A DNA stretch of 43,006 bases, taken from NCBI GenBank assembly GCA_024741835.1, contig JAENRP010000349.1:1800-44805 (forward strand), written 5' to 3'. Below, piece after piece: positions 553-42,890 of the stretch. This DNA is from Diplocarpon mali. Its lineage: Eukaryota; Ascomycota; Leotiomycetes; Helotiales; Drepanopezizaceae. The translations under genes were made by a program, and so were the position numbers. Under the pieces are notes generated by a model that did not search any database, was not told where the DNA came from, and worked only from the letters and a program-made list of their open reading frames with translations. Each line of letters starts with the position of its first letter. Position 1 is the first letter of the stretch.

Positions 553-854
553 CCCTTATTTAGACTTTACTCCAATTGACCTACAGTTAGGAAAATAATA
601 ACTATCCTTTTACGCTAATTTAACTCTTAGGTATCTTTCTAAATTAAAAACAATTAATTAATAGCAACCTTTATTAAAATCACTAAACTCTACTTATAAG
701 GTAGGACTAAGAGTTAAATTTCCTAAAAGCGTTCCTTTATAAGATTATATAACTTAACTTGCGGTCTAGGCCTAAGAGTCGATTTAAAAACTTTCTTTTA
801 TAAGACTATATAACCTAACTCGCAGGGCGGGCCTAGGAGTCGTCCTTAAGCCTA
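553..854 (-). other. A0 3' non-coding region with three GC-rich motif copies
   Basis: Lies between the gag-pol stop and the 3' LTR. It contains three copies of the ACTCGC..CCTAGGAGT motif near 700, 757 and 820, inside a unit of about 63 bp that also carries CCTTTATAAGACTATATAAC. The same arrangement is seen in A2 and A3, while A1 has only two units. No gene is seen. Confidence 0.75.
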
Positions 855-5620: not shown

Positions 5621-7306
5621 ACGGTAATAGCTTCCGATTCCGATCGAAATACCAGATTTAGAGACCTCTAACTCTCTTAAAAGAACTAGCAATAATAGTT
5701 CGACGATTTAGAGCTTTACTTTAAGAGTAAAGGTATTGAAATAGCAATTTAAAAGACACTTATTAAATATATAAGAATAGCCCTTTATATTCCCTCTATC
5801 GATTTATCTACTTCTACTTTAATAGCTAATATAACTGCTAAGGATTTGCTAAATATACTAAATAAGCTTAGCCTAAGAGCTTTAGTAGATAATAATTAAG
5901 AATCCTAAAGGCAGATTTTAAATATAGAAAAGGAGAAGGAGTATAAGCTAGCTTTAGTTAAATGTAAGCTTAAGATTAATAGAGGTTTAAGTGATAAAGA
6001 CTGAGATTTTATTTAAGTTTATAATAACGCAAAGATAAGATAGGATACTTTAAAGGTAAAATACTCTTAAATAACTGCCCTTAATACTTAGTATCTATTA
6101 TAGCAGATTACTTTATTTTAATATAGAAAAGATAAAGATAGCAAGGATATAGATATAAATATTAACTCTACTTAATCTATACTATATAAAGTAAGAAGGA
6201 GAGTAAGAGCCGTAGATCCTAGGATAGCTATAACTTTTAAAGAAACTTAGCTTTTTAATTTCCTATTTAATAGCCTCCCTCTTAAGTTTGCTATTGCGAA
6301 ACAATCTCTTCTTATTTAACCCAACCTTAAGATCTATAAGAAGATCGACCTTCTTTAAACTATTAATTAAGACTTCGAAGGATGCTCTAAATTAGCAAAT
6401 ACTGTATTATAAGGCAATAATAAGCTTAAGAAAAGGAAGGAGCGCAGGACAAGCCCTTAAGCTTATCGGGGATACTACTTTTATAATAGTACTTATAATA
6501 TTACTAATTGTAAAGTTAAAAGGCAATTGATCAATATAGTCGCTAGCTTTAATATTAAGAAGCAATCGAAGCAGAAGTTAAGAAGCAAACTGCCCTTATC
6601 CTACTAAAGGCCGCAACTACTAAAGAAAGGCAAAGGAAAAGGCTATTTAGCTAAAACTTTAGCAAATACCTCTAATAATAATAGTAGGTTATCTAAACCT
6701 AAATCCACTTTTAATAATTCAAATAATAATTATAATAAAAATACCTATATTTTAAAAGCCAATCTCTATAAGATCCTTAAATCCAATTAGTATAATAATA
6801 CTAATTGTATAGTATATATAATTAATAAACCCTACCTATTTAAAGGCCTGCTTACCAAAATAAAAAGGCACTCTATTAAGGTTAGTAGTAGAAGGTTATA
6901 TATAGACTCGATAGGTATAATAAAGATGAATATCGCTAGCGTTTCTTTCCTTTTGCAAAATATTCTCCTTATGCCTAACCTAGGCATTAATCTTTTAATT
7001 AGCTATAAGATCTATATAAAGTTAAATTATATAAGAGTTTTTAATAATCAATTTATATAATTTATAAATAATAACTATAAAGTGATCTTTAAAGCTAAAA
7101 TCAAAGATAGACTTTATATTATCTTAAAGGTAATATTATAAAAATTGACTCCTAAGCCAGACCTATAAGCAAATTCCTTTAAAGAAAGTGCACTCTTTGC
7201 CCTAATACAATTAAGCAAGGATAAGGAGAATAAATAGACTCCTAAACTAGGATCGCAAGTGAAATTCGCGAAAATAACTCTTAAGCTAGGACTATAAGTA
7301 AAATAC
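5621..7306 (+). pseudogene. A1 gag-pol, proximal part: Gag, zinc knuckle, protease
   Basis: The first part of the A1 polyprotein. Relative to A2 and A0 the start codon is altered: A1 reads ACG at 5621-5623 and has one extra A just before it. Gag follows, with a decayed Cys-Cys-His-Cys knuckle around 6460-6505, where the Cys and His codons have become Tyr and only the last Cys (TGT) survives. Next is a Copia protease-like stretch (about 6895-7000) and the first copies of the 13/16-codon repeat (7150-7300). A2 splits the frame at 7306. With A2 and one target copy removed, the frame to the stop at 23289 is 5094 nt, the same 1698-codon length as A0. Many in-frame stops. Confidence 0.87.
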
Positions 7307-7902: not shown

Positions 7903-10900
7903 ATGGTAATAGCTTCTAATTCCAATTGAAATACTAGACCTAGAGACCTCTAACTCTTTCGAAAGAATTAGCAATAATAGTTCGACGATTTAAAGCTTTA
8001 CTTTAAGAGCAAAGGCATTAAAATAGCGATTCAAAAGACACTTATTAAATACGCGAGAACAGCCTCCTATACTCCTTCTACCGATTTATCTACTTCTACT
8101 TCAATAGCTAATACAACTGCTAAGGATTTGCCAAATATATTAAATAAGCTTAGCTTAAGAGCTTTAATAGATAATAATTAAGAATCCCAAAGGCAGATTT
8201 TAAATATAAAAAAGGAGAAGGAGTATAAGCTAGCCTTAGCTAAATGCAAGCTTAAGATTAATAAAGGTTTAAGCGATAAAGACTAAGATTTTATTTAAAT
8301 TTATAATAATATAAAGATAAGATAGGATACTTTAAAGGTAAAATACTCTTAAACAACTGCCTTTAATACTTAGCATCTACTATAGTAGATTACTTCATTT
8401 TAATATAAAAAAGACAAAGATAGTAAGGATATAGATATAAATATAGACTCTACTTAGTTTATACTATATAAAGTAAGAAAGAGAATAAGAGCTATAGATC
8501 CTAAGATAGCTATAACTTTTAAGGAAACTCAGCTTTTTAGTTTCCTACTTAATAGCCTTCCTCTTAAGTTTGCTATTATAAAATAATCTCTTCTTATTTA
8601 ACCTAACCTTAAGATCTATAAGAAGATCGACCTCCTTTAAACTATTAAGCAAGACCTTAAAGGACGCTCTAAATTGGCAAATGCCGCGTTATAAGGTAAC
8701 GATAAGCCTAAGAAGAGGAAGGAGCGTAGGACGAGCCCTTAAGCTTATCGGGGATACTACTTCTATAATAGTACTTATAATATTACTAATTGTAAAGTTA
8801 GAAGGTAATTAATCGATATAATCGCCAGCTTTAATATTAAGAAGCAATCGAAGTAGAAGTTAAAAAGCAAACTGCCCTTATCCTGCTAAAGGCCGCAACC
8901 ACTAAGGAAAGGCAAAGGCAAAGGAAAAGGCTATTTAGCTAAAACTTTAGCAAATACCTCTAATAATAATAGTAAGTTATCTGAACTTAAATCCACTTTT
9001 GATAATTCAAATAATAATTATAATAAAAATGCTTATATTTTGAAAGCCGATCTCTATAAGATCTTTGAATTCGATTAGTATAATAATACTAGTTATATAG
9101 TATATATAATTAATAAACCCTACCTATTTAAAGGCCCACTTATTAAAATAAAAAGGCGCTCTATTAAAGTTAGTAATAAAAGGTTATATATAGACTCGAT
9201 AGGTATAATAGAGATAAATGTTACTAGCATTTCTTTCCTTTTGCAAAATGTTCTCCTTATACTTAGCTTAAGTATCAATCTCTTATTTAGCCGTAAGATC
9301 TATATAAAGTTGAATTATATAAGAGTTTTTAATAATCAATTTATATAATTTATAAATAATAACTATAAAGTGATCTTTCAAGTAAAAATTAAAGATAGAC
9401 TTTATATTATCTTAAAAGTGATATTATAGAAATTGACTCCTAGGCCGGACTTATAAGTGGATTCTTTTAAGGAAAGTATACTCTTTACCCTAATATAATT
9501 AAGTAAAGATAAGGAGAATAGATAGACTCTTAAGCTAGGATTGCAAGTGAAATTTATAAAAATAACTCTTAAGTTAAAATTATAAGTAGATTATAAAGTA
9601 TCTTTAAAGGTAACTCTTAAGCTAGGATTATAAATTAATTTAATAGAAATAACTCTTAGGCTAAGATCGCAAATAGATTTTGTAGATTTGCTAATATTGA
9701 CTCTTAAGCTAAAATCGCAAGTGAAATTCGCAGAAATAACTCCTAGGCTAGGACCGCAAGTGAAATTTGCGAAATTATTAAAGATAATTCCTAAGCTAGG
9801 ACTGCGAGTAGATCTTGCTATTTCTAGGAAATCGACTCTTAAGCTAGGACTGCAAGTAGATCTTGCGGTTTTATTAAAAACAACTCTTAAGCTAGGCTTA
9901 CAATTGGAAAATAGCAAAACCTCAAACTGCTATTACTAATCCTTTCTAACTGCTAATAATAAAGTATTAACTAATAATAGGCTATTAAAGCTATTAGAAG
10001 CTAAAAGCCTATTAAAGTATTAGCTAATATATAAAAGATTTGCATATTTAAGACTAGAGAAATTAAAGGGCTTATATAAGGTCTTAACCTTAAAATAGAA
10101 GATCTAAGTACTAAAGGATCACTTAATATACCGAATTTGCAAGCTAATAAAACTTTAAAATCAGATGCAAATTAAGCTTAATCTATAAAAAGATTTAATA
10201 CTTATAATAATTTCTATTAATACTATTAGACTATTTATAACTTTAATTAAAGGAAATAATTAGTTTTCTTAAATAGTAAATAACTCTACTTAATAAATAT
10301 AAACCATTTGCACTAGGATTAAATCTAAGCTTATAGAAAAGTTGGAAACTTAGAAAGTAATAAAGGAATGCTAAACCTAATTAAAGCTAATAGCTATTAG
10401 GTCTAATAATATATTAGAGATTAAGGTAAAGCTTAATAAATAGGTAAAATAAGGAATTCGTTATAAACTAACTATAATATATAAAGGTTCCTATTAGAAT
10501 AGTATCGCTAAGCGAAGCATTTAGCAAGTAAAGACTGACTATCGCGCTCTATTATAAGATACTAACCTATTACTAGAATTCTAGGACCTTGCGATTAAAG
10601 CAGATATATACTTGCAAAATAGAATAGGTAGTAGACTAATAGTTAATAGCACCCAAATATCGCTATATAAGGCATATTTCAAATAGAAGCTAAGCCTAGA
10701 CTATATCTGTATCTTTAGAAGCGTCTACTACTCTTATATTAGCCTAAAGTCCTAACCCGCGGGTATAAAGAGCAAGAAGCTAATAGACTAAGGTAAAGAG
10801 TATAAATTTATTAAGTATATTAAATAAATAATAAAGTAATAGATAGTATATACGCTAGATCTAAAGTAAGTAATTATATCCTTAATAGTTAAGTTTAACA

Positions 10901-11822
10901 AATCTTAAAATAGAAAGGAGCTATCCTTAAAGCTTTATATACTTAGAGATTTGCAAGGTATACTACTTAATAATAATACTATTAAGTCGAACTAATAACC
11001 CCTTTCTTTTAGCTTAAGCATATTAAGCGCACCTGCTAATCGACGACCTACTAATCGCCTAAAGGCTAAATAGACTATTCCTATCGTCTGCGAACTGCCT
11101 AAAGTATAAAATAACTTCGATATTATTATCTCTTTAGTTAAAGCACTTATAGTAAAGGATATTCTTAAAATAGGTATAAGTAATAATAAGCCTCTACTAC
11201 TAGAAAGCGGTTCCTTAGATAATAAGTCTATAGAACCTATAGCTAAACCTACGCCTTTAAAGAGGAATAGAGACCTAGAACCGAAAGATACCTTAGACGA
11301 ATGCGAGTTTAAGCGTATCTAGGCCATAATAGCACATAGGATCTATAAGCTTGAACTTCAATAGAGCTTTAACAAAGATAATACGTTCTTAGCCACTAAG
11401 GAGATAATAAAAATCTCTCTTCTAAAGATATACAATAAAGCTATTAATAATCTAAAGAATAGAGCAGTATAGAATAAGGCAATCTAAGAGGAGATAAGCT
11501 CTCTTACTATAAATGGTATATAAATAGAGGAACCGATGCTAAAGGACGTGAACCTAGTATTAATAAAGTAGGTCTTTATAATTAAAACATATATAGATAG
11601 GATCCTTAAATGTTATAAGGCAAGGCTTATAGCTAAAGGCTTCTTCTAATAGTATAAAGAAGACTACTTCGACACGTTCGCGCCAATAGTTCGCATAGAT
11701 ACCCTTCGCATATTTATAGCAATAGTAGCCGCTAAGGACCTTAAATGCAAATAGTATAATATTAAAAATGCATTTACTAAAGCAATTATAAAGGAATAGA
11801 TTTTTCTCTCCTGACCTAATAG
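7903..11822 (+). pseudogene. A2 gag-pol, proximal part: Gag to start of RT
   Basis: ATG at 7903 opens the best-preserved A-family start. Gag covers about 7903-8800 and has a Lys-rich C-terminal part and a decayed CCHC knuckle near 8750 (Tyr in place of Cys/His, final Cys kept). Protease-like sequence lies near 9185-9290, and the in-frame repeat array at 9436-9910. Integrase follows, with N-S-I-A-K at 10498-10512 where Glu is expected, then the usual F-W-D and Y-L-x-N-R context. RT begins with F-A-P-I-V-R-I-D (from about 11674) and is cut by G after 11822. Unnested to the stop at 19377-19379, the frame is 5100 nt, 1700 codons, all in one phase. Stops are mostly TAA/TAG at former CAA, CAG or TGG codons. 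Confidence 0.9.
9436..9910 (+). repeat. A2 in-frame repeat array of the GC-rich motif
   Basis: Ten copies of a unit starting ACTC(C/T)TA(A/G)GCTAGGA..GCAAGT at 9436, 9526, 9565, 9613, 9652, 9700, 9739, 9787, 9835 and 9883. Spacings are 90, 39, 48, 39, 48, 39, 48, 48 and 48 nt, every one a multiple of three, so the coding frame is never broken. Each unit encodes T-P-K-L-G-x-Q-V-x-F/L-A followed by a short spacer. Because the unit is nearly palindromic, the antisense strand is also open (9591-9917). It lies between protease and integrase. Confidence 0.88.
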
Positions 11823-12116
11823 TATGACGACTGGGAGTGTAACCTCTGCTTAGCACTGATACGCGTACGAATCATATAGCAATGCCAATAGAACGTCTTA
11901 GTAATAACTTAGAATCAACAACTACAGAGCCTTAAAGGAGTGGAAGGGCATAATATATATATATATAAAGAAAAGAGGGTCACCTACTTAAGGGGAGCCG
12001 AACCGGATGCCAACTAAGGGTAACCTAGTTCATAGCCTATACTGAGATTGCGCCAAGCTATAGCCGAACTGAATACAAACTAGGGTATAACCTATATATA
12101 GTGACAATCCGTTATA
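11823..12116 (-). repeat. G 3' LTR (294 bp)
   Basis: Plus strand starts TATGACGACTGGGAGTGTAA and ends AATCCGTTATA. It aligns without gaps to 17901-18194. Shared landmarks are CCTCTGCTTAGCACT, GAACGTCTTAGTAATAAC and GGGGAGCCGAACCGGATGC. Confidence 0.95.
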
Positions 12117-12131
12117 TTACCCCCCCTCTTG
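12117..12131 (-). other. G polypurine tract
   Basis: On the minus strand this reads CAAGAGGGGGGGTAA and abuts the 3' LTR, as a plus-strand primer should. It also forms the last codons of pol (Q-E-G-G-stop). Confidence 0.85.
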
Positions 12132-15100
12132 AAAAAAGCTTATCCTTAAGCGTTTAACCATAGGTTTATTATTACCTATTTCATTATAATCATCTATACT
12201 ATTAGTATAGGCCTATATCTAATTAGGAAGCCTCACAAGCGGGCCTAAGAGGTCTGGATTTTCCAAATGAAATTCGCAAAGCTTAAAAGGCGCATATATA
12301 AAATTAAAGGCTAGGTACTATTTTAAATCAATATCGCGGCTAACCTATAAGGCGCGGTATATAAGCGTACTAGCTTGCTTTCGTATAGTAAGCAGGCTCT
12401 CTACTTTGTATTCTTATTCTTTTATAATATTAATAGTAAGAGGGGGTTTATTCACTTGACTATCTAAAGGAGTACTAAGGTCCCTTTAGAGGCGACTTAG
12501 GTAGAAAATATTATATACCTTTATAGAGTCAGGTAGCTTCAATTAGTATAAACTAAACACTTTCCTTACTATCTTAAATAGGCCAGCTTTAAGGTAGCTA
12601 AGCTTTTTAAAAGGCCTATTTATAAGGTAGGGATGCATATTTAAGTATACCTAATCGCCGACTTCGAAAGTAGCAAGGCGGCAAGAGGTATTAATAGCGT
12701 TTCGTATGCGTTCCTAGGCCTTAAGGATATAAGATTTAGCAAAGGTCTAAGCTTTATAATATCTTGCGAAGTACTTAAGGGCGTCTTATCGATTAAGCTT
12801 TTAGAAAAGGGACTCCGAATCAGGTATATTAAGCTTCCAGTCCTAAATAGTACGCAAAGCGTACCTATACACTACTTCGAATGGCGATAAGCCACTAAAG
12901 GAGTCATAAGGAAGAGTTAGCTAGGCGAAATCTATTATAAGCAAGAATTCGCTCTAATCATCTTAATAGTAGCTAATAAAAGGGCAGAGGCGTTATATAA
13001 AGTATTAATTATAGTTTTCAATTTGGCCATCGGTTTAAGGGTAGTAGGCCGAGCCGAGGGTCAGTTTCGTACCTAAAACAGAGGTAAAAGCTTTCTAAAA
13101 GCTAGAAATGAATTAAGGGCCCTGGTCCGAGGTGATTATTAAAGGGGGACTAAAGTAGTAATATATATAGTATATATAGAGTTAGGCTAGCTAGCGTAAA
13201 TCGGTAGCCTTTTAGCAAGGAATCAATATCGCCTACTTACTAAACCAATCGATAATTATAAGAATATTATTATAGCTATATTTATCTTTATTAAAGCTTA
13301 TATAATCTATAGTTATATACTCCTAAGGTCGGCTTAGTACTAAGAGAGGTTAAAGTAAACTAGGTTTCTTATTATAAGGGACTTTGCTTCATCTATAGGT
13401 ATGGCAATTCTCATAGTACTAGGATATATATTAGCGTAGATTCGGCCAATAGTATTATAAAGAGAGAAGCTAGTAGGTTTTGCGCGCGCTTAAATGCGCA
13501 GTAGCAATTTGATTATAAACCTCTTATATAAGTAGTATATAGAGGTAGTCTATATTAGGTACTACTAGCTTACCTTAAAAGAGAAGCAAATCTCCTTCTA
13601 TCGTTCAAGGGTTAGTCTTAGTCAGGGCTATATCAGACCTATTCCGAAGGGCTATATGGTAATAGACTTAGTAAGGCCTATATTATCGATTAGCGGCTAG
13701 TACTTAATTAATAATATAGAAAGCAAAGGAAAAGGCCGAAACTTCTTCGATAAAGACTAAGTTCTTAACTATAGTCTATTTATAAAGCTATTCGAAGAGG
13801 ATTCAAGGGTTAATCTGATCCTAGCGTAATAATATCGTAAGGCGGTTATTGCGTTTTATTATATTCTAATCCTCTAACTTATCGATATAGCAAGTTAGGG
13901 CATTGGCGAGAGTATTTTCGGAACCAGGTCAGTAGGTAATCGTAAAGTCATATTCAGAGAGAAGCTCGGCCCAGCAGGCCTATTAAAAACTAAGGTTTTT
14001 TATAATTATAAAGTACTTAAGTACTTTATGGTCTATATATACTACGATTCAATAGGGTGCTCTTGCAAGCTCGGCTCTGAAATGGCCAAATAATCGAATA
14101 ATAGCCAGTATCTCCTTATTATATATAGCATAGTTCAGCTCGGCCGGTACTATAGTCTTACTATAATAGGCAACTGGACGCTATTCGGACCTATATTACT
14201 ACAATAATATAAAGGCGACTATACCGTCAGAGGCATCGGTTTCCAACATATAAGAGAGGTCTTACCTATAGTACTAAAGGATTAGGATATACATTAAAGC
14301 TTCTTACAACTATAAGAAGCTCTGCTCGCATTTAAAGGTAAATCAGAAGGGAACGTTATTCTTAGTAAGGTATACTAAAGGGGCAGTAATAAGACTATAG
14401 TCTTAAATAAAATAATAATAAAAGTTGCAAAAACCAAGGAATAACTAAATACCCTTTATAGTAAAAGGATAGGTCCAATTCTCTATTACCGCTACCTTAT
14501 TAAAGTTAACCCAAACGCCTTTAGTAGTAATTATAAAGCTAAGGTACTTAATCTCTATAATATTAAACTTATACTTCTTTAGGTCGGCCTATAGTCCTGC
14601 ATCCGACAATCGCTAAAGAACCCGTTTTATATATGATTTATAATCGAGTCAGTTAGTAGAATAAATAAGGATATTATTTAAGTAGGCTATATAAAAATCT
14701 TTAAGGTAATCGAAAAGGATATCGTTTATATACCTCTAATAGGTTGCAAGGCCGTTAGTAAGGCTAAAAGGGAGCACTTTGCACTTATACACACTATACT
14801 AAGTTCTAAAGGTAGTAAGCTCTTTAGATTCGAGGTCCATTCAGATTCGATAGAAAGCCTGCTATATATCAAGCTTTATAAAAATCTAAGCGCTAGCTAA
14901 TCGAGCTAAGGTCTTATCAATTAGGGGTAAGAGGTATCAATCTTTATAAGTAAGGTTATTAAGCATATAGTAGTCAATATAGAATCGTAAGGAGCCATCG
15001 GCCTTTTTTATAAATAGTACTAGCGCAGTATAGGAGGCAGAGGAGGCCTTGATAAATCCTTTATTAAGGTTATTAATAAAGTACACCTTTACTATTTCTA

Positions 15101-16260
15101 GCTTAAGTATAGATATCTTATATAAGGGGGAGTATTAAAGGGCCTTTTAAGCACCTTTAGCTATAAGCTCGATTTTGTAATTATAAGGGCGATAGGGCGG
15201 CAGCGTATCAAAAGCAGCTTTTAAAAATATATAGCAGTACTCTTTATAAGCGGCTAGAATCGGCTTCTTAGTTAGTTCAAAAGAGGCAGTTAAAACAGTT
15301 ATCGAAACCTCTCTATTATAGTATCAGTTTAAAAGGGAATCGGTTTTGCATTATTAGGTCTGACTTTCTTAATTATCTTAAATCAATCGATCAATTTCGT
15401 AAAATAAGATACTAAAGAGCTTTGCGCCTTGCTAATTCTTAGCTATTATACGAAAAGCATAGGCTAAAATTACGCATATATTTAAAGAAGAAAGGGGGAT
15501 TTTGCACTTTGCTATCTGCTTATAGGTACATTTTAGGGTTGAAATAGGAAAGGGAGCCGAGTTAGGCTTAATCGCATTAAGCTCTCGCTTTATAATCAAT
15601 ATATTATAAGAGTGGTCCTTGGAAAAGGTATTACCCTTGACTTAGGTTAGAGTTAGGGTGGAATCGGAGGTAAAGGAGTATTTATTTAAAACAATAGGAG
15701 GGAATTTAAGAAGAGGGAGCTAAGAGAGGTTTTCCTAGCATTAAGCTTTATACTCAGAAAGGAACCGTTCTAGTACTATATCCTATTAAATTGCATTTCG
15801 CTAGTAGTATCGATTTAAGTTTTATCATTTAATATTAGTGATTTTGATATTCCTTGCGAAAGAGACAGTAGGCAGGTAGGAATCAGGCTAGGTAAGCTTG
15901 CGAAAGGCATAATTAATAGAAACTTTATACTCCTTAAGCCAGGCTTATCCTAAAATCACTCTATAGTTGCTAAGGTTAGTAATAAGAAAAGGAGTAAAAG
16001 ATTGAATTCGCTAATTGATATAAAGATTAAGCAATATATAATAAGTAATAGTACTACCTTAAGAACCGTTGTATCCCTTAATTAGGAAAGGTATAGGGAG
16101 TATGCGAGTCAAAGGTTTAAAAAAAGAAGACAAAGATTTAAATAACGCTGAATCAATTAAAGTATACCTATTAGCGCTTGTATCGATTAATGCCAATACC
16201 TTATGAGAAATACCATTTTTTAAAAGTAGGATCCGTTTTATTATCGAATCGCTACTAAGG
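12117..16260 (-). pseudogene. G pol: protease, RT, RNase H, integrase, chromodomain
   Basis: Polyprotein of a chromovirus. The protease active site D-T-S-A is intact at 16173-16184. RT (about 15090-14400) has the K-K-x-D-G-S-L-R-F and L-N-N-L-T motifs, but its catalytic Y-x-D-D now reads Y-L-N-N at about 14673-14684, so it is dead. RNase H starts L-E-T-D-A-S-D-G (about 14240) and continues through V-A-Y-Y-S-K and Y-T-D-H-K-like sequence to about 13870. Integrase fills about 13750-12600, and its C-terminal part has G-D-x-V-Y-L. A chromodomain-like tail (E-Y-x-V-E near 12413, then E-F-H) ends about 12240; chromodomains are known to target integration to heterochromatin. Sampled motifs from protease, RT and chromodomain are in one phase, which differs from gag by -1. 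Stop TAA at 12117-12119. Confidence 0.9.
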
Positions 16261-16329
16261 AGGTTTCTTAAATCGAGGAATTATATATTATAAAGTGCGC
16301 CTAAGAAGGAGGCTTTACTTAGGCAGGGG

Positions 16330-17761
16330 CGTTTCCCCTAGGGGTCGGAGGGGGAAGGGGAGCACTACTATTATCTTATTCGGCCTTAGGGTCCTCCTCT
16401 TTATCGCTACTCTATCCTTGGCCATTATTATACTCTAGCTTATTAATACAAGAGCTATAATACCTAGGAGTAATAGAAGGGGATTTCGGCCATTTATCAA
16501 ACTGATTTTTTCGATTAGCTAAAAGGAGAGCGCTAGAGGTATCGGTCTAGCGCAGAGGAAAAGAGGAAGATCTAGTCTTAGTAAGGCCAGGAGCAGGAGT
16601 GCCGAACTAGGGTCGATTCAAATACAATTCAAAAAGGTTTCTTAGCAAGGGATTTGATTTGTTATTATCTCCTTATTAGGCAGGCTTGCTAAGATTAGGC
16701 TTAGCCTTAGTGCCCGATTTATCTCTATATTGTATCTAATTATATAGCATCCTCTTAGCGCGCTATCTAGCGTCTTCTTATTAGATGGCAGTAACCCACT
16801 CGTCCAACGTCCTAGTCTTATACTATTTCTATATAAGAAGGGTTTAAAGGCATTTCGGGATTTTCTCCCTAAGGGCGCTATAAAGTCGACTATTATTATC
16901 GATCTCTACTATAGCAGCTAATTAGGAGAACTTAAGGTAGAATTCCTAAAAAGACTCATTAGCCTTTATATAAAGGGCAGTAAACTCGATCTTAGCTTCT
17001 TTACGTTCCGCCGGATCAGCTAAAAACTCAGCAAGTTGACTTACTAGGGTTTCGGCAATAATATAAGCATCCCTATTAAGTACCTAAGGGGTCAGCCAAT
17101 CCTTAGCTATACCCTTAGTCTAATTTAAAATATAGTTAAGCTAGGCCCGTTCCTTATAGAAGTAAGGATAGTATAGCTCTAAATTATCAAATATATAGGC
17201 CTCTTAGTATTTAGCGCAATAGTTATAGCTATTAGACAATTTCTAAGTAAGGTTTAGTACATTATAAATGCAAGAGAGGTTTAGCTATTAAGCTAAAGGC
17301 GAACCGGTAGTATATCAGTTAAGGGAAGCAAAAGAAGGATCATCTTAATTATCGCATCGCTTACTACGCGCAGTCAAGGAAATAAAAGGAGGTAAGTCGA
17401 AGTCTATAAAGCGCTAAGGGCGCATAGGTAAACTAAAGGGGTTTCGTTCTATTACTAGTATTTTCTCAATTAATCTAAGGATGCCTTCAAAGGCACTTTA
17501 AAGGTCATCTAGATCTCTTTCTCAATCAATCAATTATTAGTATATAGAATTTAGCTTATAGTTATAACTATTACGCTCTTCTAATATAAATGCAAGTCAG
17601 ACCTATAGGAAATCTAATTCGGCTTATAATATAGTGACTTCAGGGCCGTCGTCGTCGGCCGGTAAGGAGTTGGTAGGAAAGGTACCAAGGGTAATACTGG
17701 CACCTTCTTAAAGGGAGGGAGAGCAAGAGGTCTTTAAAGACCGAGTAATAGGAGGAACCAT
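16330..17761 (-). pseudogene. G gag
   Basis: ATG on the minus strand at 17761 starts M-V-P-P-I-T-R-S and the frame continues for about 470 codons with scattered TAA/TAG. A capsid-like retrotransposon Gag segment is visible (L-D-E-W-V-T-A-I near 16800, then K-R-M-L-Y). The C-terminal part is rich in Pro, Ser and Asn, and I could not identify a clear CCHC knuckle. The pol frame that follows is shifted by -1, consistent with a Ty3/Gypsy-type gag-pol junction, although an indel cannot be excluded. The coding end is approximate. Confidence 0.75.
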
Positions 17762-17900
17762 TCTTTCAGCTTATAGCAAGAGCTTAGTATAGGTCTTCTA
17801 ATATATTATTATACTTATTAGGGTTTCGGTCGACTACTAGGAATAATATAGATAGATATTATAAATGCTATCTTTAGCAAAGCAAAAGAGTTATTAATAA

Positions 17901-18194
17901 TATAATAACTAAGAGTATAACCTCTGCTTAGCACTAATACATATACGAATCATATAATAATACTAATAGAACGTCTTAGTAATAACTTAGAATCAATAAC
18001 TACAAAGTCCTAAAGGAGTGAAAGGGCATAGTATATATATATATAAAGAAAAGAGGGTCACCTGCTTAAGGGGAGCCGAACCGGATGCTAACTAAGGGTA
18101 ACCTAATTCATAGCCTATACCAAGATTGCGCTAAGCCGTAGCCGAACCGAATACGAACCGGGGTACAACCCATACATAGTGACAATCCGTCACA
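17901..18194 (-). repeat. G 5' LTR (294 bp)
   Basis: On the minus strand it starts TGTGACGGATTGTCACTATG. The copy is slightly different from 11823-12116, by transitions only as far as I can see. I could not recognise a convincing tRNA primer site just inside it (plus 17885-17900). Confidence 0.93.
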
Positions 18195-19379: not shown

Positions 19380-19681
19380 TAGGCTTAAGGACGACTCCTA
19401 GGCCCGCCTTATAAGTCAGGTCATATAGTCTTATAAAGGAAAAGTTTTTAAATCGACTCTTAAGCCTAAACCGTAAGTCAAGTCATATAGTCTTATAAAG
19501 GAATACTTTTAGGAAATTTAACTCCTAGTCCTACCCTGCGAGTAAGGTTAGTGATTTTAATAAAAGTTGCTATTAATTGATTGTTTTTAATTTAAAGAGA
19601 TACCTAGGAGTTAGATTAGCGCAAAAGGATAATTATTATTTTCCTAACTGCAGGTCAATTGGAGTAAGGTCTAAGTAAGGG
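19380..19681 (+). other. A2 3' non-coding region with three motif units
   Basis: Three copies of the GC-rich motif start at 19394, 19457 and 19521, in a 63-64-bp unit that includes GTCATATAGTCTTATAAAGG. A purine-rich stretch TAAGTAAGGG ends at 19681, just before the LTR, and is the likely polypurine tract. Confidence 0.8.
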
Positions 19682-19881: not shown

Positions 19882-22800
19882 AATATATTCTTAAAGATAA
19901 CTCTTAAGCTAAGATCATAAGTGAATTTAATAGAAATAACTCTTAAGCCAAAACCGCAAGTAAATTCTATAGATTTGCTAATAATAACTCTTAAGCTAAG
20001 ATCGCAAGTAAAATTCGCAGAAATAACTCCTAGGCTAGGACTATAAGTAAAATTCGCAAATTTATCAAAAACGACTCTTAAGTTAGAACCGCAAGTAGAT
20101 CTTACTATTTCTAGGAAATCGACTCTTAAGCTAGGACCGCGAGTAGATCTTGCGGTTTTATTAAAAATAACTCCTAAGCCAGGCTTACAATTGGAAAATA
20201 GCAAAACCTCAAACTGCTATTACTAATCCTTTCTAACTGCTAATAATAAAGTATTAACTAATAATAGGCTATTAAAGCTATTAGAAGCTAAAAGCCTATT
20301 AAAGTATTAGTTAATATATAGAAGATTTGCGCATTTAAGGCTAAAGAAATTAAAGGGCCTATATAAGGTCTTAACCTTAAAATAAAAGATCTATATACTA
20401 AAGGATCGCCTAGTATGCCGAATTTACAAGCTAATAAAATTTTAAAATCAAATGTAAATTAAGCTTAATCTATAAAAAGATTCAATACTAGCACTAATAT
20501 CTATTAATACTACTAGACTATTTATAACCTTAATCAAAGGAAATAATTAGTTTTCTTAAATAGTAGATAACTCTACTTAGTAGATATAGACTATTTGCAC
20601 TAAGACCAAATCTAAGCTTATAAGAAAGCTAGAAACTTAAAAAGTAATAAAGGAACGCCAGACCTAATTAAAGCTAATAGCTATTAGGTCTAATAATATA
20701 TTAAAAATTAAGGCAAAGCTTAACAAATAAGTAAAATAAGGAGTTTATTATAAACTAACTATAATATATAAAGGTTCCTATTAGAATAGCATTGCTAAGC
20801 GAAGCATCTAGTAAGCAGAGACTAACTATCGCACTCTACTATAAGATACTAACTTACTACTAGAATTCTAAGACCTTATAATTAAAGCAAACGCATACTT
20901 GCGAAATAGAATAAGTAGTAGATTAATAGTTAATAGCATTTGAATATTACTATATAAGGCATATTTCAAATAGAAACTAAGCTTAGATTATATCTGCATC
21001 TTTAAAAGCGTCTGCTACTCTTATATTAGCCCAAAGTCCTGGTCTATAAGTATAAAGAGTAAGAAGCTAATAGATTAAAGCAAAGAGTATATATTTATTA
21101 AGTATATTAAATAGATAATAAAGCAGTAGATAGTATATGCGCTAGATCTAAGGCAAATAATTATATCTTTAATAGTTGAGTTTAATAAATCTTAAAATAA
21201 GGGGGAGCTATCCTTAAAGCTTTATATACTTAGAGATTCGTAAGGTATACCACTTAATAGTAATACTATTAAGCTGAATTAATAACCCCTTTCTCTTAGC
21301 CTAAGTATATTAAGCGTACCTGCTAATTAATAACCTATTAATCGCCTAAAGGCCGAATAGACCATTCTTATTATTTACAAACTTCTTAAAGTATAGAATA
21401 AGTTTAATATTATTATCCCTTTAATTAAAGCACCTATAGTAAAGGATATTCCTAAAATAGGTATAAGTAACAATAAGCCTCTACTATTAGAAAGCGGTTC
21501 CCTGAATAATAAGCCTATAGAACCTATAGCCAAACCTATATCTTTGAAAAGGAATAAAGACCTAAAACTAAAAGATACCTTAGACAAATGCGAGTCTAAG
21601 CGTATCTAAGCTATAATAGCATATAAGATCTATAAGCTTAAACTTTAATAGAGCTTTAATAAAGATAATGCATTCCTAGCTGCTAAAGGGATAATGAAAA
21701 TCTCTCTTCTAAAGATATATAATAAAGCTATTAATAATCTAGAGAATAAAGCAGTATAGAATAAGACAATCTAAGAGGAGATAAGTTATCTTATTGCAAA
21801 TAGTATATAAATAGAGGAACCGATGCTAAAGGATATAAACCTAGTTTTAATAAAATAGGTCTTTATAATTAAGATATATATAAATAGGACTTTAGAATAT
21901 TATAAGGCAAGGCTTATAGCTAAGGGCTTCTCCTAATAGTATAGAGAAGACTACTTTAATATATTCGTACTAATAGTTCGCATAGATACCCTTTGCATAT
22001 TTATAGTAATAGTAGCTGCTAAGGACCTTAAATATAAATAGTATAATATTAAAAATACATTTACTAAAGCAATTATAAAGGAACGGATTTTTCTCTCTTA
22101 ACCTAATAGTGTTCTTATACGCGCTAGCTACTCTCTTTATATACTCCGCAGTATCTATAGACTTAAATAATCAGCCTATAATTAGAACCTCTTATATAGC
22201 TTTGCTTTAATAGAAATAGGATTCGTTTAAAGCCTAGCTAACCCTTATCTATTTACCTATATTAAGCGTAGAATCAAGTTGCTACTATATATTAATAATA
22301 TTACTATAGTTGTAAAAATAACTATTTAATTAAATTGGTTCTTTATAATAATTTGGAAACGTTTTAATACTAAGGATCTAAGGGGAATTTATAAGATCCT
22401 TAGTATCTATATTATAAGGAACCGCTCTATTTAAGAACTCTAATTAGATTAAAAGCAGTATATTAAGAAGATCCTAGACCGAATAGGACTCTTTGCTTAT
22501 ACTCCTAACTTTAAGCTAAAGCGTACTTTAATCGAAGGAAAGTATAATAAGTTAAAGCCTATTAATGAAAATAAGTAGAAAGGAGATTTAAAGAAGTACT
22601 AATAGGATATTAGAGCAATTATATATACTATAATATATATAAGACCAGATATTGCCTTTATTATTAAGCAACTTAATCAAAACCTAAAGGATCTGACAAT
22701 TTGATATAAGAATATAGTTAAGCGACTTAAAAGGTATCTTCAATCGATAATTATATAAAAGGTAAGATATAAACTAACGAAATATATAAGTGTAAAGCTT

Positions 22801-23289: not shown

Positions 23290-23530
23290 TAGGCTTAAGG
23301 ACGACTCCTAGGCCCACCCTGCGAGTTAAGTTATATAGTCTTATAAAGGAACGCTTTTAGGAAATTTAACTCCTAGTCCTGCCCTATAAGTAGAGTTTAA
23401 TAATTTCAATAGAGGTTATTATTAATTGATTATTTTTAATTTAAAGAGATACTTAAGAGTTGGATTAGCGTAAAAGGATAGTTATTATTTTCCTAACTGC
23501 AGGTCAATCGGAGTAAGGTCTAAGTAAGGG
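23290..23530 (+). other. A1 3' non-coding region, only two motif units
   Basis: GC-rich motif copies at 23304-23326 and about 23369-23391. One unit of about 63 bp is missing compared with A0, A2 and A3, which probably recombined out between neighbouring repeats. A purine-rich tract TAAGTAAGGG ends at 23530. Confidence 0.8.
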
Positions 23531-25248: not shown

Positions 25249-25294
25249 AAGTAGTACTTAAGAAGGAGATTATAATAAAGTAGCGATTATTATA
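25249..25294. other. Backbone segment 2 between A0 and B
   Basis: 46 bp: right target copy of A0 (AAGTA), 36 bp of backbone, then left target copy of B (TTATA, 25290-25294). A0 and B inserted only 41 bp apart in the original DNA. Confidence 0.85.
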
Positions 25295-25527
25295 TGTTGC
25301 AAGTATGCCTGTCACATGTTTGTCACATGATCTGTCATATGACATATTATACATATAATATGTCATATGACTTGCCATATGACTTAGTGGCAGCCCTTGT
25401 TAAATAGCTCGTAGTTAGAGAGCTCTTATGAATTAAGATACCTAATATTGTCGTTTGCACCTTATACTTCTTTATGCCTTCTTTTAGTTTACTATCAAGT
25501 TTACTATTAAAGAACCTTCTTGCTATA
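25295..25527 (+). repeat. B 5' LTR (233 bp)
   Basis: Starts TGTTGCAAGTATGCCTGTCA and ends CCTTCTTGCTATA. Contains a run of overlapping palindromes around TGTCATATGACATATTATAC (25342-25388). Confidence 0.95.
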
Positions 25528-26976: not shown

Positions 26977-27053
26977 ACTTGCGAGCCGGGCCTAGGAGTC
27001 AATTCCGACTCCTCCTTAGGGCTAATTTCCACTCGCAGGCCGGGCCTAGGAGT
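26977..27053 (+). repeat. GC-rich palindromic motif, two copies in B protease region
   Basis: Copies at 26977-26999 and 27031-27053 in the orientation ACTCGC..CCTAGGAGT, encoding P-G-L-G-V. A degenerate piece (GACTCCTCCTTAGGGC) lies between them. They are 54 nt apart, in phase, just before the protease active site. Confidence 0.88.
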
Positions 27054-28443
27054 CAGTTCTTCTACCTCCTACTTCTTATTAAAATTAAGGAATCGTTGGC
27101 TATATAATACAAGTGCTAATAAGCACATTTCTAATAATCTCTTTAAGTTTACCTCCTATACTACTTAAGATAATCTACCCTCTTTAAGTATAGTTAATAG
27201 ATCTATTCAACCTTTTAGCATTAGCACTTGCAAAGTTAATGCACTTAAATCTAATAGAAAGGTATATATTCTTAAGTTAATTAATACTCTTTATATACCT
27301 TAATTACCTATCTGCTTATACTTAGGTGGTAAACTTAATAAAATCAAAGGCTTCTATCGAAATAGCAAGCTATTCCTATCTAATAAAAAGGAAATTTGTA
27401 CTATCGATAATAATATATATATAAATGAGAAACAGCCTTCTATTAACTCTTCTAATTATATAAGTGGATATGCTCTCCTAGCTGCTATTAAGAATGGACC
27501 TCTTGATATTAAGCTCTAGTACTATTGATTAGGCTACGCTAGCCTATAAACGGTTAAAAAGACCTAATCTACTATTACTAATATGCAGATTAAGGAAATA
27601 AAATCAAAGAAGACGCGAATTTGCGCTTCTTGCGAGAAGGGCAGACCTCTTTAATATATTAATAAATGTTTAGCTTGCCCTCGACCTACAAAGGCACTTG
27701 ATAAGCTATATATCAATATGGTTTATCTAAAGCCAACTAGCCTTAATAGCTACAAATACGCTTCTATCTTCACTTGCGTAGCTATAATAGTTAAATAGGG
27801 ATAGACTTATATAAATAAATCTAATGCCTTCGAGGTAAATAAGAAGATAATTAGCCTTTTATAAACTTAGTATAATCGCATAATCAAGCGGTAGAGAACT
27901 GATAAAGGCAAAGAGTACTCTTTTATATAGATGTAAATACTTATAGAAAACCTTAGTATAATTTTAGAAGAATCTACTCTATATACGCTAGAATAAGACG
28001 GTAGATTAGAATAATCAATTCGTATACTAATGGAAAAGTTGCAAATAGCTATAATTAACTAAAATATCCCCTCCTTTCTCTGGCCTTACCTCCTTCTTTC
28101 AATAATATATATCACTAATCTTACTGCCTCTAATATTCTAAGTGGCAAGATTCTATATAAGGTCTTTTAGGATAATATTAAGCCTAATAAGCCTTATACT
28201 CCTTTAGTCAAGCATCTTCGAGTACTAGGCTATTACGTCTATATGCTAATCGAGAAAGAAAAGCGAACTTAAAGTAACAAACTCGCTTTAAGAGCAGAGG
28301 TAGGTACTCTTATCGGATTTAATAGTAGAAGTATCTATTAGATCTATATACTATTGCAAATAGGTAAAAAGATTATTCGATTATCTTATATTCGATTTGA
28401 TAAAGATGGCCTAATTATAGAGTCGCAATTAAGGGGTGATTTC

Positions 28444-28556
28444 ACTCCTAGGCCGGGCCCGCGAGTCACTTCTTAAAACGATATTTTCACTCCCGGGCCG
28501 GGACCGCGAGTCAATTCTGACTCTTACGATTTTACTCTTAGGCCGGGACCGCGAGT
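28444..28556 (+). repeat. GC-rich palindromic motif, three copies in B pol linker
   Basis: Copies at 28444-28466, 28489-28511 and 28534-28556, spaced exactly 45 nt, in the opposite orientation (ACTCCTAGG..GCGAGT), encoding R-P-G-P-R-V. They sit in the integrase-RT linker. The bases are nearly RIP-free: CCGGG and GCGAG survive in all three copies. Confidence 0.9.
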
Positions 28557-30360
28557 CGATTCAAAAGAAGCTAATAAAGCTGAGCTTCTAACTTTAAGAA
28601 AGAGAGGAAGACCTCCTGGTTTAAAGAATAAGGCTTACCCTTAGCCTTTCGAAAAGAGAGCTACTCGCTCTACTGCTCTTAGATTCAAAGCTGATAACTC
28701 TAATAATAAGAAAGCCTATTTAAGCGCCTTCTATATGGCCTTACTCGACTCTTTATACCTAAATAACTTGAAAACAGTCGAATAAGCCCTCTCTTGCGCT
28801 AATGCTAATAAATGGCGATTTGCAATTAACTCTAAGTATAATTCCCTCGCTTATAAGGATATATAGGTAGTAGTGAAACGCTTAGAACTCTCTAAAGACA
28901 ATAGAGTACTCGGATTAAGACTTATCTTTAAAATAAAAAGAGATTAAAATAGGGAAATCTCTTAATAGAAGGTTAGATTTGTTATATAAGGCTATATATA
29001 ATAATAAGGTCGAGATTATAACTAAACCTTTGCTAGCGTTTGCAAATCTGCAGTTTAGAAGATCGCAATTGCGCTTATAGTGCTATACGACTTCGAGCTA
29101 GATCAGTTCGATATTAAGATAGCTTTCCTTAATTTAAAAGCTAACTTTAATATATATATCAAGTTACCTTTTAAATATACTTAAAATAAGGTTGTTCTTT
29201 TACCTTAAGACCACTGTCTTAAGCTTCTTAAGGCCTTATATAGCTTAAAGCAATCTTTATAACTATAGTAAGAAAAGCTATAGTCTAAGCTATAAAAGCT
29301 CGATTTTCAACCTCTCGATACTAATAATTGCATATATATCAACCGCGCCTCTTAGATCCTTATTATTACCTATATCGACGACTTCCTTATAGTAGCTAAG
29401 AAAGGTGATATATATAATAAGTTTAAGAGAGATCTTTGCAACCTCTTTAAGATTATAAGTAGCAAATCGGCTAACTACTTCTTAAGAGTACGTATAGTCA
29501 AAGATTAATAAAATAGAATAATCTCACTTTATTAAAACGCCTATATTAATAAGGTTTTTAAACGTTTTTATATAACTAATTGCAAGAGCGTACTAATGCC
29601 TTTTGCTAATAGCTATAAAGTTCATATAGTCAAATTTAAAGGCTAAGCCACTTTATAAGAAGTGAAGCTATATTAGGAGATCTGCGGTTCTCTATAGTAC
29701 CTTGCGCACTATATGCGTTAGGATATACTATACCACTGCTCTATTCTTAGCAAATTCCTTATTAACCCTTCGCTATAGTATATAGTAGCTTTAAAACGAG
29801 TTTTATAATACTTACAAGGAATGCGATTCTATTATACTACCTTCGGAAGTAAAACGACTGACTTAGAGCTTTAGAAATTGTATAGCTACTGCAATTCTGA
29901 CTAGGTAGGTAATAGAGGAACTAGAGCCTCCTATTCTAGGGCTGTCTTCTTCCTTAATAATGGTATAATTACCGCCTCCTTTAAGCGATAGACTATTATC
30001 GCTCTCTTATCTATAGAAGCAGAGTACATCGCTATATGCAAATTCGCATAAGAGGGCTCTTAGATACGCCAAGTACTTAAAGAAATAGGCTATAGCAGCA
30101 ATAATGCTACTAAAGTCGAGATGATCTGCAATAACTAAGGAGCCCTTTATCTTACTAAAAACCCCGAATATTATTAGAGAACGAAGTATATCGATATCAA
30201 GTTCTATTATATTCGGCAAGAGCTTTAGAAAGGCCATTTGGACCTTTAGTATACAAATACTAAAGATAACGCCGCTAATAGACTTACTAAGAGCTTAAAT
30301 AGCTCTAACTACGCCGCCTTTATCAAATTGTTAAATATGAAGGTTTTGCACCTTAATTAA

Positions 30361-30633
30361 AGGGTGATTTTTTTTTTACACCTTTATTATAAGGTGATTT
30401 TTTTTGCACTTCTATTAAGGGGTGATTTTTCTACTCCTGGGCCGGGCCTGCGAGTTGATTTTTAACTTATTAAAGGGTGGATTTCCTACTCTAAAGTAGA
30501 GCGCGCTAGCGAACTCTACTCTATTTCCCATATCTGCAGGTTGATTTTTCATATAAAACTATAAATTATAATAAAAGTTATAATATTATATATATTATTA
30601 GCGAGTACCTTTAAAGGTCTCCCTAGAGGGGTA
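30361..30633 (+). other. B 3' non-coding region with AAGGGGTGATTTTT repeats
   Basis: Three to four copies of (A)AGGGTGATTTTT at about 30359, 30391, 30418 and 30473, the third followed directly by a GC-rich motif copy at 30433-30455. The same AAGGGGTGATTT precedes the coding motif copy at 28444, so the two travel together. CCCTAGAGGGG ends at 30631, just before the LTR, and is the likely polypurine tract. No gene is seen. Confidence 0.8.
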
Positions 30634-30866
30634 TATTGCAAGTATGCCCGTTACATATTTATTATATAATCTGTTATATGATATATTATATATATGATAT
30701 ATCATATGACTTGCCATATGACTTAGTGGCAGCCCTTGTTAAATAGCTCGTAGTTAGAGAGCTCTTATGAATTAAGACACCCAATATCGTCGTTTGCACC
30801 TCATACTTCTTCGTGCCCTCTTCTAGTTTACTATCAAGTTTACTATCAGAGAACCTCCTTGCTATA
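30634..30866 (+). repeat. B 3' LTR (233 bp)
   Basis: Starts TATTGCAAGTATGCCCG and ends CCTCCTTGCTATA. It matches 25295-25527 with transition differences concentrated in the CATATGACA palindromes. Confidence 0.95.
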
Positions 30867-38497: not shown

Positions 38498-38799
38498 CCC
38501 CTACTTAGATCTTACTCCGATTGACCTATAGTTAGAAAAATAATAACTATCCTTTTGCGCTAATCTAATTCCTAAGTATCTCTTTAAATTAAAAATAATT
38601 AATTAATAGTAACCTTTATTAAAATCACCAACCCTACTTATAAGGCGGGACTAGGAGTCAAATTTCCTAAAAGCGTTCCTTTATAAGACTATATAACTTG
38701 ACTCGCAGTCTAGGCCTAGGAGTCGATTTAAAAAACTTTCCTTTATAAGACTATATGACCTAACTCGCAAGGCGGGCCTAAGAGTCGTCCTTAAGCCTA
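38498..38799 (-). other. A3 3' non-coding region, three motif units
   Basis: Three copies of the GC-rich motif near 38636, 38700 and 38763, with AAGACTATATAAC spacers, as in A0. No gene is seen. Confidence 0.78.
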
Positions 38800-42416: not shown

Positions 42417-42890
42417 ATTATAAGCCTAGCTTAAGAGTCATTTTTAATAAAACCGCAAGATCTACTTATAGTCCTAGCTTAAGAGTCGATTTCCTAGAAA
42501 TAGCAAGATCTACTTATAGTCTTAGCTTAAGAGTTGTCTTTAACAAATTTGCGAATTTCACTTACAGTCCTGGCCTAAGAGTCATTTCTACGAATTTCAC
42601 TTATAATCCTAGCTTAAGAGTTATTATTAGCAAATTTGCAGAATCTACTTACAATCTTAACTTAAGAGTCATTTTTACTAAATTCACTTATAATCCTAGC
42701 TTAAGAGTCATCTTTAAAGATACCTTATAATCTACTTATAATCTTAGCTTAAAAGTCATTTTTATAAATTTTACTTATAATCCTAGCTTAAGAGTCTATC
42801 TATTCTCCTTATCCTTACTTAATTATATTAGGGCAAAGAGTGCACTTTCCTTAAAGGAATCTACTTATAAGTCTGGCCTAAGAGTTAATT
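42417..42890 (-). repeat. A3 coding repeat array of the GC-rich motif
   Basis: About ten copies of the same unit as 9436-9910 on the opposite strand (plus strand shows CCTAGCTTAAGAGTCATTT). The antisense (plus) strand is open from 42404 to 42730, as in the other copies. Confidence 0.82.

What the first reader, a model, noticed from the sequence alone, without database searches (positions are those of the whole stretch)
26977..30455. A 23-bp GC-rich imperfect palindrome shared by two unrelated Copia families, in both orientations and in frame
Seen: the motif starting ACTCCTAGG, with CCGGG at its centre and ending GCGAGT, occurs in B at 26977, 27031 (reverse orientation), 28444, 28489, 28534 and 30433. 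In family A, decayed versions form the coding array (9436-9910 and homologues) and the 3' non-coding units (for example 19394, 19457, 19521 and 23304). B and A LTRs are unrelated, yet both carry it, in coding linkers and in untranslated DNA. In B both orientations are in frame, encoding P-G-L-G-V or R-P-G-P-R-V. Inference: this behaves like an independent, self-spreading mini-repeat (comparable in style to mitochondrial GC clusters) or a binding site gained by several elements. I know of no named element of this kind.
Basis: partly seen in the sequence, partly recalled or inferred. Interest (0 to 1): 0.85.

Follow-up and report, generated by a model that had tools for sequence, protein, structure and literature searches.

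The report
Shared mini-palindrome in fungal retrotransposons
A 23-letter, nearly palindromic DNA word, usually read as the peptide TPGPGPRV or a variant, sits between protein domains and in untranslated ends of at least four different retrotransposon families of one fungus, so a tiny piece seems to have spread among them, by a route that is not yet shown.

Summary
In detail: 50 motif sites in the window against a mean of 0.03 in 100 shuffles, and 288+289 strand hits genome-wide against 0 for the pattern read backwards.

It is wider than reported: four LTR families carry it, Copia A and B and Gypsy-like C and E. All 93 distinct sites examined lie in these four. Positions differ between families. 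The shared part is a 23-bp core; beyond biased flanks of about six bases nothing is shared. Of 15 independent coding locations 14 use one frame, T-P/R-G-P-G-P-R/G-V.

Best reading: one ancestral micro-segment exchanged between retrotransposons, probably by template switching in reverse transcription, kept in linkers and multiplied in tandem. It works like a Rickettsia palindromic element but fails membership. My paper searches, judged from listings, showed nothing alike.

The parts
26977..26999 (-). motif copy 1 in the gag-protease linker of Copia family B (in frame, TCEPGLGV on the + strand)
27031..27053 (-). motif copy 2 in the gag-protease linker of B (in frame, TRRPGLGV on the + strand), just before the protease motif
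28444..28466 (+). motif, first unit of the integrase-RT linker array of B (TPRPGPRV), 45-bp period
28489..28511 (+). motif, second unit of the B integrase-RT linker array (TPGPGPRV)
28534..28556 (+). motif, third unit of the B integrase-RT linker array (TLRPGPRV)
30433..30455 (+). motif in the 3' untranslated region of B, after the stop of the polyprotein frame and before the 3' LTR
25293..25527 (+). B 5' LTR as found by the repeat search (boundaries approximate)
30632..30866 (+). B 3' LTR, 90% identical to the 5' one (boundaries approximate)
757..779 (-). motif in the 3' untranslated units of a family A copy
818..840 (-). motif in the 3' untranslated units of a family A copy (ACTCCTAGGCCCGCCCTGCGAGT)
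3952..4421 (-). decayed linker array of a family A copy (eight units listed)
7148..7299 (+). three decayed units of a family A copy
9436..9857 (+). decayed linker array of a family A copy; best unit 9739-9761
19394..19543 (+). three 3' untranslated units (19394, 19456, 19521) of a family A copy
19939..20192 (+). decayed linker array of a family A copy
23304..23391 (+). 3' untranslated units (23304, 23369) of a family A copy
38636..38785 (-). three 3' untranslated units (38636, 38701, 38763) of a family A copy
42464..42885 (-). decayed linker array of a family A copy (seven units listed)
11817..18190 (-). negative: a Gypsy-like LTR element F (296-bp repeats 88% alike) in which the motif scan found no copy

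Best explanation
The motif is one ancestral micro-segment, a 23-bp GC-rich near-palindrome. It passed between the genomes of at least four LTR retrotransposon families of one fungus while they were active, and was then multiplied locally in tandem (mostly 45- or 48-bp units). Shown: common sequence, four families, differing positions, sharp boundaries, tandem copy-number change, frame bias, no protection in dead A copies. Inferred: the route is copy-choice (template switching) during reverse transcription of co-packaged RNAs, for which a short self-complementary GC-rich stretch is a plausible landing site. This would explain why the sampled copies are confined to retroelements. Copies survive in coding DNA only where the polyprotein tolerates them (linkers), nearly always in the frame that gives T-P/R-G-P-G-P-R/G-V; copies in untranslated ends are passengers. 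It stands out to the eye because decay, strongest at CA and CG, leaves CC- and CT-rich sequence standing.
For: Strict core 288+289 strand hits, backwards control 0. 93 of 93 distinct sites examined lie in A 20, B 30, C 34, E 9: 72 are every distinct place in the rows that one search listed (contigs C1-C58), 21 come from 20 regions I chose among the 31 later places. Positions: A protease-integrase linker and 3' UTR; B gag-protease, integrase-RT, 3' UTR; C gag, protease-RT, RNaseH-integrase; E 13 places in L056/L057 including the 3' end. Information over 31 sites is high in the core, weak for about 6 bases each side, at most 0.22 bits further out to the limit shown. Cross-family flanks match for at most 9 bp with one mismatch in 375 pairs; offset control at most 8 in 2250. 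Tandem variation: B array 2-4 units in 11 sequences; C RNaseH-integrase array 2-4 units in 17 rows, 15 distinct places, 1 unit in L046. Frame: 14 of 15 coding locations in frame 0, p 2e-6. Core decays like surroundings: CpG 190/294 vs 1514/2484, CpT 30/159 vs 791/3983, CpC 46/312 vs 372/2523.
Against: No transfer was caught in the act. No empty site: 39 B copies besides the window (the best 40 of 191 candidates were scored, a choice that favours complete copies) align through the 3' site with a net length difference of -3 to +8; 8 of 8 E sites of L057 are present in L055; 5 of 5 C gag copies have it, several decayed. Template switching would normally carry longer flanks, yet none is shared between families. 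The frame bias is not predicted by neutral landing. C and E were recognised as families from loci this same search supplied, and most genome hits were not examined.
Confidence: 0.45

Rival explanations
1. An independent selfish mini-element, with its own means of insertion, comparable to Rickettsia palindromic elements or mitochondrial GC clusters. The mirrored flank bias (RAWTYS on the left, SRAWTY on the right) would be a symmetric target preference seen only in the average over sites.
For: Defined boundaries and mirrored flank bias; many single copies with unrelated flanks within one element E; coding and untranslated positions; near-palindrome.
Against: No site outside retroelements in 93 examined; no target-site duplication (0 of 31 sites with even 2 identical bases on both sides); no empty site; no carrier gene known.
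Confidence: 0.17
2. A peptide module: the octapeptide TPGPGPRV is useful or uniquely tolerated as a flexible inter-domain linker (perhaps near processing sites), so selection acts on the protein. Untranslated copies are by-products. The core GGN-CCN-GGN-CCN is Gly-Pro-Gly-Pro on either strand, which makes part of the palindrome automatic.
For: 14 of 15 coding locations in one frame. Among 20 coding copies, leaving out the polarity positions 5 and 19, transversions fall on third codon positions in 21/140 cells against 1/280; with 5 and 19 included 21/140 against 15/320. Positions are inter-domain linkers.
Against: The cells are not independent: besides 5 and 19 and one change at 22, only positions 9, 12 and 15 vary by transversion. 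The 9 untranslated copies show the same tilt (6/63 against 2/126), which coding constraint at those places cannot cause. Third position 3 never varies in 31 sites and 21 hardly. One coding location (E RNaseH-integrase) uses frame 1; two further E places with short open frames also read frame 1 if counted as coding.
Confidence: 0.18
3. A cis-acting RNA or DNA site (RNA dimerisation/packaging palindrome, or binding site of a nuclear protein such as a Zn2Cys6 dimer) gained by several elements because it helps them.
For: Near-palindrome shared by four families; present near the 3' end in A, B and E; one E copy folds at -12.7 kcal/mol, z -2.8, and the B copy at 27031 has z -1.55.
Against: Pairing does not covary (82.6% of cells paired against 83.4% in shuffles; position 5/19 unpaired in 21 of 27); four of six copies folded have z between -0.5 and 0.6; no protection in decayed A copies except a weak sign in the CpC class of the 3' UTR units (6/92, p 0.02); many copies lie in coding linkers.
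Confidence: 0.12
4. Simple inheritance: the four families descend from one element that already had the repeats.
For: 3' untranslated copies occur at a comparable place in A, B and E.
Against: Copia and Gypsy-like elements carry it in different linkers; a Podosphaera relative of A (50% identity) has no TPGPGPRV before its integrase; the scan found none in the Gypsy-like element F of the window.
Confidence: 0.05

Closest known systems
Rickettsia palindromic elements (RPE) and Wolbachia palindromic elements
   Same: Short palindromic DNA found in frame in unrelated proteins as well as outside genes, tolerated by the host protein.
   Different: RPE are 105-146 bp with terminal inverted repeats and sit in bacterial genes (PMC2229807, passages seen; Wolbachia in-frame elements in PMC4224334, passages seen). 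Here the word is 23 bp, in a fungal genome, and found only in retrotransposons in 93 of 93 sites.
Mitochondrial GC clusters, double-hairpin elements and Fusarium mitochondrial palindromes
   Same: Short palindromes spread through an AT-rich genome.
   Different: Those are mitochondrial, and for the Fusarium ones presence in one species and absence in another is reported (PMC7218506, passages seen). Here no such optional site was found. GC clusters themselves are recalled.
Coding minisatellites (tandem amino-acid repeats in linkers; recalled)
   Same: 45/48-bp units, in-frame copy-number change of 1-4 units.
   Different: Here the same 23-bp part is shared between unrelated elements with different spacers, and occurs as dispersed single copies in E.
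Coding palindromes of Nematomorpha mitochondria
   Same: Palindromic DNA that is also coding.
   Different: Long perfect inverted repeats (up to 284 bp) whose arms encode conserved protein regions (PMC6649704, abstract seen), not a dispersed word.

Membership tests
Rickettsia palindromic element (RPE) | palindromic repeat in frame in unrelated proteins | tested here: met
   15 coding locations in four families, read in open frames; the hosts are retroelement polyproteins and E's extra ORFs only
Rickettsia palindromic element (RPE) | length 105-146 bp with long stem-loop | tested here: not met
   23-bp core plus biased flanks of about 6 bases; size criterion
Rickettsia palindromic element (RPE) | insertion shown by empty/filled sites | tested here: inconclusive
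   no empty site; a Podosphaera relative of A lacks it, but is a gene model and may be incomplete
Mobile mini-element (MITE-like) | target-site duplication | tested here: not met
   0 of 31 sites with 2 or more identical bases directly on both sides, 1.2 expected at 2 bases by mispairing; longer, offset or decayed duplications not tested
Mobile mini-element (MITE-like) | copies dispersed outside the carrier elements | tested here: inconclusive
   0 of 93 examined sites outside A, B, C, E; the remaining hits were not examined
Conserved RNA hairpin | compensatory changes in the stem | tested here: not met
   covariation within shuffle range
Host-protein binding site kept by selection | lower decay than surroundings | tested here: not met
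   context-matched decay in family A equal for CpT, CpG and CpC and higher for CpA; a weak sign only in the 3' UTR CpC class (6/92, p 0.02). Tested for A only
Zn2Cys6 binding site | binding by a nuclear protein | not testable with these tools
   needs a binding assay; inverted CGG/CCG triplets are seen only in some copies (sequences; triplet rule recalled)
2A ribosome-skipping peptide | NPGP core (recalled) | tested here: not met
   the 20 coding copies listed read T-x-x-P, none NPGP

The most novel reading that the evidence does not exclude
A protein-coding mini-palindrome of a fungal genome that spreads as its own unit among retrotransposons of different superfamilies, using their replication. 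It would be a parasite of parasites, and the first coding palindromic element of the RPE kind known to me in a eukaryotic nucleus.
Probability: 0.28. Interest if true: 0.82.

Novelty: new variant of a known kind. Interest (0 to 1): 0.58.

Why it matters
A word of 23 bp shared by Copia and Gypsy-like elements, with no longer flanks in common, would be a visible trace of sequence exchange between unrelated retrotransposons, a process hard to see otherwise. It would offer a natural tag for studying template switching between families, and a nuclear counterpart to the coding palindromes of Rickettsia. It also shows how C-to-T decay makes an unprotected GC-rich word look conserved.

Tried and rejected
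Rejected: chance; simple inheritance at aligned positions; conserved hairpin; protection by a bound protein in dead A copies; long shared flanks that would mark one large transferred block; target-site duplication at the core ends; 2A peptide.

Led nowhere: protein searches with A and C pieces found 2 and 1 relatives; viral contigs held no pattern match and no relative of the A piece; the window's Gypsy-like F is too distant from C to align the linkers; the species could not be named. The genome is fungal by 22 Fungal_trans_2 matches and has six DNA-methylase matches. Pfam gave no family for the E extra-ORF pieces scanned. My first exact pattern had a wrong spacing and found nothing.

Weakened by my own checks: the codon-position test falls from 1/280 to 15/320 non-third-position transversions when the two polarity positions are counted. 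I first took the flank bias for outer palindromic arms of a 35-bp unit; at single sites left and right flanks do not pair (inverted match at 3 bases 0 of 31, 2.6 expected by mispairing), so I now claim only a 23-bp unit. The frame count of 15 leaves out two E places with short open frames that read frame 1 and that I class as non-coding; with them it is 14 of 17, p 5e-5.
Full report
WHAT IS THERE. The window is 31% G+C with strong loss of CA/TG (CA 0.44 and TG 0.38 of expectation), as in fungal DNA hit by repeat-induced point mutation (inference). The genome is fungal (22 Fungal_trans_2 matches, none in 14 control genomes). All six named B copies and the A copies were found. With a cost that halves C-to-T and G-to-A changes, the window holds 50 sites at cost <=4; the reversed consensus gives 0 and 100 dinucleotide shuffles give a mean of 0.03, maximum 1.

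GENOME-WIDE. The B-like exact pattern has 93 places and 0 for the pattern read backwards. The looser core ACTC-NNN-GGCC-S-G-S-M-C-NNN-GAGT has 288 forward and 289 reverse hits and 0+0 controls; because it is nearly palindromic many places count on both strands. I fetched every distinct place in the 100 rows that one search listed (72 places, contigs C1-C58; loci L001-L060) and 20 regions from the 31 later places (21 sites). Of these 93 distinct sites, 93 lie in four LTR families: A 20, B 30, C 34, E 9. Two cautions. C and E were recognised from loci of this same listing. For some loci the reference slice covered the same place; their membership then rests on other copies. Hits not examined remain open.

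THE FOUR FAMILIES. A and B are Copia: A pieces hit RVT_2 and Pol_BBD above the cut-off and gag_pre-integrase below it. B shows protease, integrase and RT motifs in Copia order, read by eye from a mildly decayed copy, L022, and the window. C is Gypsy-like: its pol piece matches P0003, which carries PF00078; its own pieces gave no Pfam hit. What first looked like two families, D and E, is one giant Gypsy-like element: the integrase piece lies exactly 1123 bp upstream of the D part at both C12 and C1, and LTR-like ends are 95% alike over 196 bp. E has a retroviral-type aspartyl protease above the cut-off and an integrase-core match below it; its RT was read by eye. Two extra ORF groups in it are paralogous (three piece pairs at E 1e-5 to 2e-7).

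POSITIONS. A: array between protease and integrase, and three units after the polyprotein stop. B: gag-protease linker, integrase-RT linker, one unit after the stop. C: gag N-terminus, protease-RT linker, RNaseH-integrase linker. E: 5' region, gag, protease-RT (two), RNaseH-integrase, extra ORFs and the space between, 3' end.

SIZE OF THE SHARED UNIT. Over 31 sites (several of them units of one array) the 23-bp core carries about 0.5-1.9 bits per base. Six bases on each side carry a weak bias, RAWTYS on the left and SRAWTY on the right; further out it is at most 0.22 bits as far as shown. The two consensus flanks mirror each other, but at single sites they do not pair: inverted match at 3 bases 0 of 31 against 2.6 by mispairing. 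Flanks of 375 cross-family pairs match for at most 9 bp with one mismatch allowed; an offset control reaches 8. Short matches of 6 or more are commoner than in the control (28 of 375 against 21 of 2250), as the flank bias predicts. Inside B, the first integrase-RT unit and the 3' unit share a further left stretch of about 15 bp (ATTAAGGGGTGATTT), which suggests copying within the element.

TANDEM GROWTH. The arrays have mostly 45-, 48- or 39-bp periods, multiples of three. The B integrase-RT array varies from 2 to 4 units among 11 sequences including the window. The C RNaseH-integrase array varies from 2 to 4 among 17 rows, which are 15 distinct places, with 1 unit in L046.

FRAME. Of 15 independent coding locations, 14 read the core in the frame ACT-CCN-GGN-CCN-GGN-CCN-CGA-GT (TPGPGPRV and variants); one, the E RNaseH-integrase linker, reads LASPACES. 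The binomial chance of at least 14 of 15 at one third is 2e-6. Two E places (L056:5004, L057:4245) lie in short open frames that read frame 1; I class them as non-coding, but counting them gives 14 of 17, p 5e-5. Some of the coding pieces are short (from 51 residues). GGN-CCN-GGN-CCN is Gly-Pro-Gly-Pro on both strands, so part of the palindrome is a by-product of this reading. Transversions among 20 coding copies fall mostly on third positions (21/140 against 1/280 without positions 5 and 19; 21/140 against 15/320 with them). The 9 untranslated copies lean the same way (6/63 against 2/126), as if derived from coding ones. These cells are not independent. The invariance of third position 3, and near invariance of 21, argue for identity of DNA as well.

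WHY IT STANDS OUT. I compared the little-decayed A copy L052, taken as the older state, with the decayed A copies of the window, by sequence context, for 11 chosen better-preserved units of L052. The core decays like the rest: CpG 190/294 against 1514/2484, CpT 30/159 against 791/3983, CpC 46/312 against 372/2523; CpA decays even more, 38/41 against 1881/2520. Only the CpC class of the three 3' UTR units is lower (6/92, p 0.02). The alignments overlap in part, so cells are not fully independent. In dead A copies the motif is thus neither protected nor selected; it persists because it has few CA/TG steps.

STRUCTURE. For the 10-pair hairpin over 27 distinct copies 82.6% of cells pair, against 83.4% after shuffling; position 5/19 is unpaired in 21. 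Of six copies folded, one E copy folds clearly better than its shuffles (z -2.8), one B copy somewhat (z -1.55), four do not.

IS IT MOBILE? No empty site of the motif was seen. In B, 39 copies besides the window (40 scored of 191 candidates, so biased towards complete copies) align across the 3' site with a net length difference of -3 to +8. In E, 8 of 8 sites of L057 are present in L055, and the 4 that L031 covers are present there. In C, 5 of 5 gag copies have it. The gains therefore predate the copies seen. The only polarising hint is a Podosphaera relative of A (P0002, 50% identity over 65% of the query) whose sequence before the integrase has no such repeat; it is a gene model and may be incomplete.

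LITERATURE. Searches of open full text returned nothing that describes such a word in retrotransposons, judged from listings; 'GPGPRV' occurs in 0 papers. Comparators: PMC2229807 passages (RPE size and in-frame insertion), PMC4224334 passages (in-frame Wolbachia elements), PMC7218506 passages (mitochondrial palindromes), PMC6649704 abstract and outline.

VERDICT. Observation confirmed and widened; interpretation partly supported. Common origin of the word in four families is secure; spread between families is strongly suggested by the differing positions; mechanism and mobility are open.

Noticed in passing
L056:4087-9901 and L057:1-9900 (C12, about 227.9-243.6 kb): A giant Gypsy-like element of at least 15.7 kb, little decayed, with two paralogous extra ORF groups; the ORF pieces scanned gave no Pfam match. 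Its integrase segment has at least 40 scored copies of 259 first-look candidates.
   Followed up: partly
window:30484-30525, and L002, L003, L007 near 1440-1560: Next to the B 3' unit a second short palindromic stretch (CTACTCTAAAGTAGAG...) is present in some B copies (window, L003) and absent in others (L002, L007): a presence/absence difference of a mini-hairpin.
   Followed up: no
window:30345-30432: The B 3' untranslated region has its own tandem array of a roughly 30-bp unit (AAGGGTGATTTTTTTTGCACCTNTATTA-like), whose start also lies left of the first integrase-RT unit at about 28428-28442.
   Followed up: partly
window:11817-18190: A Gypsy-like LTR element (296-bp repeats, 88% alike) with no copy of the motif in the scan; 37% identical to C over 82 residues at the start of RT.
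   Followed up: partly
L046:about 21-44: The C gag start has the peptide TANPGPRD, similar to TPGPGPRV but with different codons (ACTGCCAACCCCGGTCCTAGAGAT).
   Followed up: no
alignment of L033/L044 with L056 (5' part of E): A gap of about 50 bp: L033 and L044 have an extra low-complexity CCTTCTCCTTCTACA-type stretch that L056 lacks.
   Followed up: no
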